NCBI GenBank assembly: GCA_009904015.1
Contig: WYEQ01000014.1
Coordinates: 1 to 64,000, forward strand
DNA length: 64,000 nucleotides
Direction: 5' to 3'
From: Desulfurococcales archaeon
Lineage (GTDB): Archaea > Thermoproteota > Thermoprotei_A > Sulfolobales > Fervidicoccaceae
Shown: positions 1-8,114 of the stretch, piece by piece
How positions within the stretch are numbered: the first letter of the stretch is position 1
Layout: each line of letters opens with the position of its first letter
The notes under the pieces: model-generated
The model's database searches: none
Seen by the model: only the letters and a program-made list of their open reading frames with translations
Told to the model about the DNA's origin: nothing
Program-made: the position numbers and the translations under genes

Positions 1-524
<524 letters not shown>

Positions 525-700: not shown

Positions 701-709
701 TACTAGTGG

Positions 710-717
710 TTTATAAG
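710..717 (-). promoter_or_regulatory. TATA box of the rRNA operon
   Basis: On the minus strand the sequence reads CTTATAAA, a near-ideal archaeal TATA box, preceded by an A-rich stretch that could serve as BRE. It predicts transcription start near 685-690 and a leader of about 160 nt before 16S. No second strong TATA element lies between it and the 16S start. Confidence 0.7.
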
Positions 718-769
718 ATTTATTCCCTGTTGTCTCCCCGGTCATTATTATTTTTGTGTGAAGCGCTGT

Positions 770-854
770 CCCCGAGGCTGGAGGCACGGTGCTCATTCTC
801 GGAGCGGTTTGGCTCCGCGTTGCCCGTGCGCCGCCGGGCGATTCAGCCTCGGGG
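770..854. ncRNA. candidate structured RNA with 11-bp closing stem
   Basis: An 85-nt, very GC-rich block is closed by a perfect 11-bp inverted repeat (CCCCGAGGCTG at 770-780, CAGCCTCGGGG at 844-854). Inside are GCACGG/CCGTGC and CGGAGC/GCTCCG pairs, or alternatively GCCCG/CGGGC. High GC noncoding islands in hyperthermophiles are usually stable RNAs. On the minus strand the closing stem is followed immediately by ACA (769-767), the position of an ACA box in H/ACA guide RNAs, but the internal loops are asymmetric and no clean K-turn is seen. Strand and class are therefore undecided. It sits between the aminopropyltransferase gene and the rRNA promoter. Confidence 0.45.
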
Positions 855-977
855 CCGGTCGTAAATGATGAACCAGCGCTTATCTAGGCTTTTTCCCGGG
901 GATCCAAGACTATCTATATGATAAAAAAGAGTTATAAGGGTTTCGCCAGAGTAGCATCGTTTATCAGCGGCGCTTCC

Positions 978-5156: not shown

Positions 5157-5253
5157 AAAACCAAGTTCTCTATACAAGAATCCTGCCAGAAAAAGCATTG
5201 TTGAACCTAAACAACACGACAAAGAAAAGTGATTAGTGGCGGCGGGGCCCGCG

Positions 5254-5436
5254 TGGTAGCGGGGGGTGGACTTTCACGGGGGCTTAGCCCCCGTTTTGAA
5301 CCACCGACCTCGGGGTCCCTCAGAGGGGTGCTCGCCGAGGCCGGCGAGCCCTCGTATGAGCTTCGCGGGGCGAGACTCGCTCCGTCCGAGCGGGTGCCCG
5401 CTCCTCCCGCGGGCTACCTGGCTGCCCTACCCCGCT
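5254..5436 (-). tRNA. initiator tRNA-Met (CAT) with three introns and encoded CCA
   Basis: Exons assemble into a 77-nt archaeal initiator tRNA: acceptor AGCGGGG/CCCCGCT with A1-U72, D-arm GGGC-AGCCAGGTA-GCCC, anticodon stem CGGGG/CCCCG with loop CTCATAA, T-arm GGTGG-TTCAAAT-CCACC, then ACCA. Intron 1 (5362-5405, 44 nt) splits the anticodon stem between positions 30 and 31. Intron 2 (5317-5354, 38 nt) is at the canonical 37/38 site. Intron 3 (5271-5294, 24 nt) lies in the T-loop at 59/60 and is mostly a CGGGGGC/GCCCCCG hairpin. The three consecutive G-C pairs next to the anticodon loop are the initiator signature. Leader GGCGGGG (5449-5443) and trailer CCCCGCC (5247-5241) can pair. The other tRNAs in the window do not encode CCA. 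Confidence 0.95.
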
Positions 5437-5592
5437 GTTTATCCCCGCCAAAAACTCTTTTTTGGTCTAAAGGTTAAAAAATCTGTCCTACGGGCCTTTT
5501 CCTCGATTTAAGAAAAACAAGCTTGAACTAAGATAGTGATTGTTATAAAAAGCTTAATATGTTATGGAGGAAATGTTTCTAGTTAAGCTTTC

Positions 5593-8017: not shown

Positions 8018-8114
8018 TGGGGCCGCCGGGATTTGAACCCGGGACCACCAGCGCTCCGGTGGCTACGGGGAGCACCCCCAGGCTGGCATCCTAGCCAAGC
8101 TAGACGACGGCCCC
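8018..8114 (-). tRNA. tRNA-Pro (GGG) with one intron
   Basis: Acceptor stem GGGGCCG/CGGCCCC with A73, T-arm CCGGG-TTCAAAT-CCCGG and anticodon stem CCAGC/GCTGG are complete. The loop reads C-T-GGG-G, giving anticodon GGG, and an intron of about 22 nt (8054-8075) lies at the canonical 37/38 position. The intron boundary could shift by a base or two because of the G run. CCA is not encoded. Confidence 0.9.

What the first reader, a model, noticed from the sequence alone, without database searches (positions are those of the whole stretch)
770..854. Unannotated GC-rich stem-structured RNA candidate beside the rRNA promoter
An 85-nt island with a perfect 11-bp closing stem and internal helices stands out in composition from its flanks. 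On the minus strand ACA follows the stem directly, as in H/ACA guides, but the internal architecture is not a clean H/ACA. It lies just upstream of the rRNA operon promoter and downstream of the aminopropyltransferase gene. It may be a new small RNA class or a regulatory structure for rRNA transcription.
Basis: partly seen in the sequence, partly recalled or inferred. Interest (0 to 1): 0.6.

Follow-up and report, generated by a model that had tools for sequence, protein, structure and literature searches.

The report
Pseudouridine guide RNA beside 16S gene
The stem is the gene of a small guide RNA that most likely tells the cell's pseudouridine-making enzyme which uridine to change in 16S ribosomal RNA, and in two distant groups of archaea this guide gene sits right in front of the 16S gene that it serves.

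Summary
On the minus strand, window 767-854 is an H/ACA guide sRNA and a diverged homologue of Pab19 (Rfam RF02794), neither a new RNA class nor an rRNA promoter element. Rfam finds it end to end (33.4 bits, E 5.5e-4) but below the family's gathering score of 55. A covariance model built only from relatives in turn finds Thermococcus Pab19 (E 9e-9 to 5e-7). Lower, GA and apical stems covary strongly. The guide arms match 16S GGAGG-U-GCAUG-GCCGUCG, by my numbering the Pab19 site S1017. The striking part is position: of 182 Thermoproteota copies with a 16S 5' end found, 180 lie 84-849 nt upstream of 16S on the same strand, as do 50 of 50 Thermococci genomes examined (132-140 nt). One such case, Tko-19 of T. 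kodakarensis, is in print as lying in the rRNA leader. The RNA was not found in families f11 and f7 and is unlinked in one small phylum. No transcript or pseudouridine was shown here. In this genome a TATA-like box lies between sRNA and 16S, so co-transcription is unproven.

The parts
767..854 (-). H/ACA guide sRNA core (Pab19 homologue), lower stem to ACA
   Evidence: Rfam RF02794 hit 767-873, 33.4 bits, E 5.5e-4, below gathering 55; own model R1 67.2 bits, E 1.1e-11, the only match with E below 1 in 64 kb (the window copy is one of the 20 training rows)
846..854 (-). lower stem, 5' strand CCCCGAGGC
   Evidence: covaries with 770-778
830..845 (-). 5' guide loop; CGGCGGC at 830-836 pairs with 16S GCCGUCG (one G.U)
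   Evidence: coordinates; present in 105 of 105 order copies, hits of a model that itself contains it
820..829 (-). GA stem 5' strand (GCACGG GC) and non-bulged K-turn strand AA
   Evidence: sequence; stem pairs covary across 68 sequences (helix 3)
798..819 (-). apical stem and loop CGCGGAGC-CAAACC-GCUCCGAG
784..797 (-). K-turn bulge AAU, GA, and GA stem 3' strand
   Evidence: sequence; RNAfold gives the same stem
779..784 (-). 3' guide CCUCCA; CCUCC pairs with 16S GGAGG
   Evidence: coordinates; CCUCC at this place in 74 of 105 order copies and CUCC in 99 of 105
770..778 (-). lower stem, 3' strand GCCUCGGGG
767..769 (-). ACA box, 14 nt from the GA stem
   Evidence: ANA in 104 of 105 order copies
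761..768 (-). possible outer stem strand CAGCGCUU, pairs with 874-881 (tentative)
   Evidence: fold; outer stems in relatives not clearly above control
874..881 (-). possible outer stem strand AAGCGCUG (tentative)
929..937 (-). TATA-like box upstream of the sRNA (TTATAACTC)
   Evidence: motif only
709..717 (-). TATA-like box of the rRNA operon (CTTATAAAC)
   Evidence: motif only
1..524 (-). 5' part of 16S rRNA, the likely target molecule (cut by the contig end)
   Evidence: RF01959, 455.9 bits

Best explanation
Window 767-854(-) encodes a single-hairpin H/ACA guide sRNA, homologous to Pab19 of Pyrococcus. Inferred mechanism: L7Ae binds the K-turn, and Cbf5-Nop10-Gar1 bind the stem and ACA. The loop arms CGGCGGC (5') and CCUCC (3') clamp 16S rRNA at GGAGG-U-GCAUG-GCCGUCG, and Cbf5 turns the U (P. 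abyssi S1017 by my numbering, about E. coli 1052) into pseudouridine. Placing the gene directly before, and in many lineages apparently inside, the 16S leader would supply guide in step with its substrate. Shown here: homology, stem covariation, complementarity (to 16S of relatives), synteny. Inferred: transcription, protein binding, modification, any advantage of the location. My split: H/ACA guide 0.93; 16S as substrate 0.85; that exact U 0.65.
For: Full-length RF02794 match, E 5.5e-4. A Thermoproteota-only model finds Thermococcus Pab19, E 9e-9 to 5e-7. Covariation: A1, 20 rows, 11 of 14 pairs changed on both sides, score 0.547 against 0.188 shuffled, 0 of 500; A2, 68 rows, score 0.618 against 0.173, 0 of 500, slid versions at most 0.114 (A2 was fitted to the model). 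ANA box in 104 of 105; at least a 7-bp complement to GCCGUCG in 105 of 105, 9 bp in 78 (the model that found them contains this motif). The tandem GGAGG/GCCG(U/C)C target occurs at this 16S site in 7 of 7 rRNA operons, 0.09-0.27 expected per shuffled operon. Thermococci 16S reads GCCGCCGUC and the guide GACGGCGGC (9 of 9 Watson-Crick); Thermoproteota 16S reads GCCGUCGCC and most guides GGCGGCGGC (9 of 9, one G.U). Linkage: 180 of 182 Thermoproteota copies, 50 of 50 Thermococci genomes. Literature: Pab19-S1017 (PMC4652768); P. abyssi m1Psi938 = E. coli 966 (PMC7005279), which puts S1017 at GGAGG[U] in Pyrococcus-like loci.
Against: The Rfam gathering score is not met (33.4 of 55). Five nt (GCAUG), not one, lie between the target U and the 5' duplex, unlike the canonical U-N spacing (recalled rule). 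In this window the 5' duplex is 7 bp with one G.U, not 9 (f1). The K-turn tandem reads AA/GA, not GA/GA. Two genomes (L255, L257) have C at the proposed U yet keep the guide. Four of 7 operons hold one more strict tandem match, elsewhere. The own 16S past nt 524 is missing from the assembly, so own-genome pairing is inferred from relatives. No expression data.
Confidence: 0.8

Rival explanations
1. An H/ACA guide whose main or second target is the 16S U at E. coli 966 (UUGGAG-U-CAACGCCGGG, the m1acp3Psi position), clamped by CUCCA and CCCGGCG.
For: It recurs in the top list of the target scan in 5 of 7 genomes. In G090 and G171 a 16S change to CGCCAGG meets a guide change to CCUGGCG.
Against: G084, G018, G046 and G054 carry 16S changes without a matching guide change. 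Other families have ACCCCG or similar with no compensating guide. Thermococci Pab19 lacks CCCGGCG. The unpaired stretch UCAA is not canonical.
Confidence: 0.12
2. The element acts mainly as part of the pre-rRNA: a leader hairpin needed for folding, processing or transcription of the 16S precursor, with guide activity secondary or lost.
For: Extreme positional conservation beside 16S. No TATA-like box between it and 16S in 20 of 20 f2 copies. In two genomes the target U is C but the RNA is kept.
Against: In 22 of 26 f9 and 4 of 5 f1 copies (this window included) a TATA-like box lies between, so it would be outside the leader. One copy is inverted relative to 16S (G064). The RNA is kept without a 16S within about 1.5 kb downstream in 5 of 5 genomes of another phylum. 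The guide arms and the ANA box are among its most conserved bases.
Confidence: 0.1
3. A new non-H/ACA small RNA class, a box C/D RNA, or a transcription-regulating or terminator structure on either strand.
For: The plus strand also folds well (z -3.93), and a stretch ATGATGA just outside the core, plus strand, resembles a box C by eye.
Against: Homology and covariation fit minus-strand H/ACA. No box D (CUGA) seen near the C-like motif, by inspection only. Of the copies with a 16S 5' end on the same contig, all but G064 read in the 16S direction.
Confidence: 0.03

Closest known systems
Pab19 H/ACA sRNA of Pyrococcus/Thermococcus (Rfam RF02794)
   Same: Single K-turn hairpin, 9-bp lower stem, ACA or ATA, large 5' guide loop with CGGCGGC, 3' guide with CUCC, position upstream of 16S on the same strand.
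   Different: Below the Rfam gathering score; no conserved 5' extra hairpin; in this window a TATA-like box lies between it and 16S; 7-bp rather than 9-bp 5' duplex.
Tko-19 of Thermococcus kodakarensis (PMC4247193, section 13 read)
   Same: A snoRNA-like gene immediately upstream of, and likely within the leader of, the 16S-tRNAAla-23S operon. That Tko-19 is the Pab19 orthologue is my inference from position and name.
   Different: Another phylum; the paper has dRNA-seq data, here there is no expression evidence.
Pyrobaculum H/ACA-like sRNAs sR201-sR210 (PMC4652768, section 16 read)
   Same: K-turn hairpin guides of Thermoproteota.
   Different: Most lack a lower stem; this one has a full 9-bp stem and an ACA directly after it.

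Membership tests
H/ACA guide RNA (class) | lower stem followed directly by ANA box | tested here: met
   CCCCGAGGC/GCCUCGGGG then ACA; ANA in 104 of 105 order copies
H/ACA guide RNA (class) | 14-15 nt between GA stem and ACA | tested here: met
   14 nt, CUCCAGCCUCGGGG (rule read in PMC4652768)
H/ACA guide RNA (class) | 10-layer GA stem | tested here: inconclusive
   GCACGG + GC + AA/GA gives 10 layers with one bulged A; RNAfold pairs only 8
H/ACA guide RNA (class) | K-turn for L7Ae | tested here: inconclusive
   bulge AAU and GA present, but the other strand reads AA instead of GA; most relatives have GA
H/ACA guide RNA (class) | internal-loop arms complementary to rRNA on both sides of a U | tested here: met
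   CCUCC and CGGCGGC to GGAGG-U-GCAUG-GCCGUCG, with a 5-nt gap after the U; 16S of relatives, not of the own genome
H/ACA guide RNA (class) | binds Cbf5/Nop10/Gar1/L7Ae and directs pseudouridylation | not testable with these tools
   needs biochemistry
Pab19 (Rfam RF02794) | Rfam gathering score 55 bits | tested here: not met
   33.4 bits; 0 of 98 relatives reach it, Thermococci do (69 of 101)
Pab19 (Rfam RF02794) | homology over the full model length | tested here: met
   model positions 1-102, E 5.5e-4; reciprocal R1 hit
Pab19 (Rfam RF02794) | target 16S S1017 | tested here: inconclusive
   the homologous 16S site fits; modification not shown; the numbering is derived by me

The most novel reading that the evidence does not exclude
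A guide RNA for 16S has been held in front of its own substrate since before the split of Thermococci and Thermoproteota. Embedded in the 5' leader in many lineages, it would act in cis on the nascent 16S (one guide per substrate, modification before excision), so that modification, leader processing and rRNA dosage are coupled. Separate promoters, as in this window, would be a derived escape from that arrangement.
Probability: 0.25. Interest if true: 0.78.

Novelty: new member of a known kind. Interest (0 to 1): 0.52.

Why it matters
It annotates a guide RNA across a phylum where the public model misses it (0 of 98 relatives over the Rfam cut-off). It turns a single remark on T. kodakarensis into a conserved rule across two phyla: the guide for a 16S site is encoded just in front of 16S. 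That makes a clear question testable: does a leader-embedded guide modify its own nascent rRNA in cis? It also gives natural tests: lineages with a TATA-like box in between, an inverted copy, an unlinked copy, an apparent loss (f11), and genomes whose target U is C.

Tried and rejected
New class or transcription regulator: rejected after the Pab19 match and the covariation. Box C/D: a C-like motif on the plus strand, no box D by eye. U966 as the main target: first favoured from the scan, dropped after relatives without compensation. Outer 8-bp stem (874-881/761-768) as a conserved processing stem: f1 5 of 5 with score 7 or more against 42% of mismatched controls, other families not clearly above control, so left tentative. 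Divergent copy beside 16S in f11/f7: 12 stretches (10 f11, 2 f7) searched with filters off, best 10.6 bits, E 2.2. Own-genome 16S/23S for direct pairing: none returned; since 524 nt of 16S are in the window, that family search misses fragments, so absence of the rest is likely but not proven. Second weak H/ACA-like hit in the window at 5245-5347: E 0.2-0.9, not followed beyond. TATA-like boxes were found by a plain regular expression without shuffle control, so promoter statements are weak.

Counts and rows dropped. R1 order search: 105 copies in 104 of 214 genomes; 12 copies had no 16S 5' end by the pattern, 5 of these (f5) were found with a looser pattern, 7 stay unknown. Outside the order: 89 copies in 88 genomes (of 300 drawn); 63 linked by listed places (the 16S list was cut by the tool), 7 more, 14 more, 5 unknown (4 short stretches without 16S, G518 not fetched). 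tallies loci, some genomes more than once. A1 used 20 of the 29 loci (those with insertions and near-duplicates left out). A2 used 68 sources chosen by me for spread. One search used 53 loci, leaving out loci from genomes already in it. The 7 operons are related to each other and not independent.

Full report
What is there. On the minus strand of window 767-854 lies an RNA of this form: CCCCGAGGC (lower stem, 846-854), a 16-nt loop UGAAUCGCCCGGCGGC (830-845), a GA stem and K-turn-like bulge, an apical hairpin, CUCCA (779-783), GCCUCGGGG (lower stem, 770-778) and ACA (767-769). It folds much better than shuffled sequence (z -4.95, 0 of 200). The plus strand folds well too (z -3.93), so strand was judged by homology.

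Identity. Rfam at its gathering thresholds shows only 16S and a tRNA in the first 12 kb. At relaxed threshold a single family appears for 520-1000: RF02794, Pab19, an H/ACA RNA, aligned over model positions 1-102, 33.4 bits, E 5.5e-4, gathering score 55. The same family searched in 98 relatives gave matches at E 1 or better in 34 and none over the cut-off; at least one of the 30 loci fetched (L031) looks like a chance hit in coding sequence. A model (R1) built from 20 sequences of the order finds the window copy as the only match with E below 1 in 64 kb, and finds Thermococcus Pab19 with E 9e-9 to 5e-7 although no Thermococcus sequence went into it.

Covariation. In A1 (20 sequences) the lower stem has 6 of 8 pairs changed on both sides and 98.8% of cells paired; the whole named structure scores 0.547 against 0.188 in shuffles, 0 of 500 reaching it, and 0.025-0.117 when slid. 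In A2 (68 sequences incl. Thermococci; fitted to the model, so leaning towards it) the score is 0.618 against 0.173, and the GA stem is supported as well.

Guide and target. PMC4652768 (Toffano-Nioche et al. 2015; abstract, passages and sections 10 and 16 read) names the pairing Pab19-S1017; the primary paper is not held and was not seen. P. abyssi m1Psi938 equals E. coli 966 (PMC7005279, passage). In Pyrococcus-like loci that U lies at offset 928 from TTCCGG and GAGGAGG[U] at 1007; 938 + 79 = 1017, so S1017 is the U of GAGGAGG[U]GCAUGGCCGCCGUC. The Thermococci guide GACGGCGGC pairs 9 of 9 with GCCGCCGUC. Thermoproteota 16S has GCCGUCGCC there, and 78 of 105 order copies can pair 9 of 9 (one G.U); all 105 pair at least 7. 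The window copy pairs 7 (CGGCGGC with GCCGUCG) plus CCUCC with GGAGG. Because hits were gathered with a model that contains these motifs, their conservation is partly built in; stem covariation and the linkage are not. A strict tandem complement occurs at this 16S site in 7 of 7 operons (0.09-0.27 expected per shuffled operon), with one further strict site elsewhere in 4 of 7. Against: the spacing U-GCAUG-duplex is not the canonical U-N, and two genomes (L255, L257) carry C for that U. Three genomes have C at the nearby U (GCA[U], about E. coli 1056), so that U is not universal either. The 966 site was tested and is the weaker candidate.

Linkage. In the order, R1 matches 104 of 214 genomes, 105 copies. 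A 16S 5' end was found for 93 of them by pattern and for 98 with a looser pattern; 96 of these 98 lie upstream of 16S on the same strand. Distances in nt: f2 125-153, f5 127-134, f3 141-175, f9 174-431, f6 183-445, f1 213-321, f8 285-849, f10 110 and 175, f4 203. Exceptions: G064 (opposite strand) and G116 (another contig). Outside the order, 84 of 84 copies with a 16S end found lie 84-189 nt upstream, same strand. Thermococci: RF02794 matches 70 of 101 genomes of the class, and 50 of 50 genomes examined have it 132-140 nt upstream of 16S. In the small phylum of G216, 5 of 5 genomes have the RNA but none shows 16S within about 1.5 kb downstream. No R1 match in f11 (31 genomes in the list, 15 with 16S found) or f7 (5 genomes, 2 with 16S found), and none beside 16S with filters off (12 stretches).

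Leader or own promoter. In f2 a TATA-like box lies within 90 nt upstream of the sRNA in 19 of 20 copies and none between sRNA and 16S in 20 of 20, so there the sRNA is probably in the pre-rRNA leader. In f9 (22 of 26) and f1 (4 of 5, with this window) a TATA-like box lies between; f6 is mixed (15 of 32). In this window: TTATAACTC at 929-937 upstream of the sRNA and CTTATAAAC at 709-717 before 16S. These are motif calls without a shuffle control.

What is known and what is not. For T. kodakarensis the 2014 transcriptome paper (PMC4247193, section 13 read) states that a snoRNA called Tko-19 lies immediately upstream of, and likely within the leader of, the 16S operon. Searches of the held library listed no paper that I could see reporting this linkage in Thermoproteota, or its conservation; I read abstracts in listings and passages of the likeliest papers only. 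Among reviews, PMC8339473 (section 4 read) and PMC3608112 (passages) do not mention it where I read. The library lacks most subscription papers, so this is not proof of novelty.

Verdict. An ordinary kind of RNA, newly placed: a diverged Pab19-type H/ACA guide. The conserved seat in front of its own substrate is the part a specialist would find surprising.

Noticed in passing
window 5190-5560: GC-rich intergenic stretch with weak H/ACA-like matches (PyrR207 5261-5322(+) E 0.21; Pab19 5245-5347(-) E 0.91); could be another guide RNA or chance.
   Followed up: partly
window 8018-8114(-): tRNA gene of 97 nt for which ARAGORN gives a four-base anticodon 'gggg' and no amino acid; perhaps an intron-bearing tRNA.
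   Followed up: no
L255 and L257 (16S of G341 and G454): 16S reads GAGGAGGCGCAUGG: the proposed target U is C, yet the guide RNA upstream is kept.
   Followed up: partly
L149 (G064): sRNA sits beside 16S but on the opposite strand, the only such copy seen.
   Followed up: no
L019, L025, L027, L032 (f6): The 3' side reads CCUCCAGCCUCCAGCC or similar in three of these, as if the 3' guide had been duplicated; all four have inserts between apical hairpin and 3' guide.
   Followed up: no
L112 and L125 (G054): Two sRNA+16S pairs in one assembly, one f9-like and one f3-like: a second operon or contamination.
   Followed up: no
window 731-743(-) and L030 downstream of the sRNA: GACCGGGGAGACA is shared by this genome and G002 between the sRNA and the rRNA TATA-like box, meaning unknown.
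   Followed up: no
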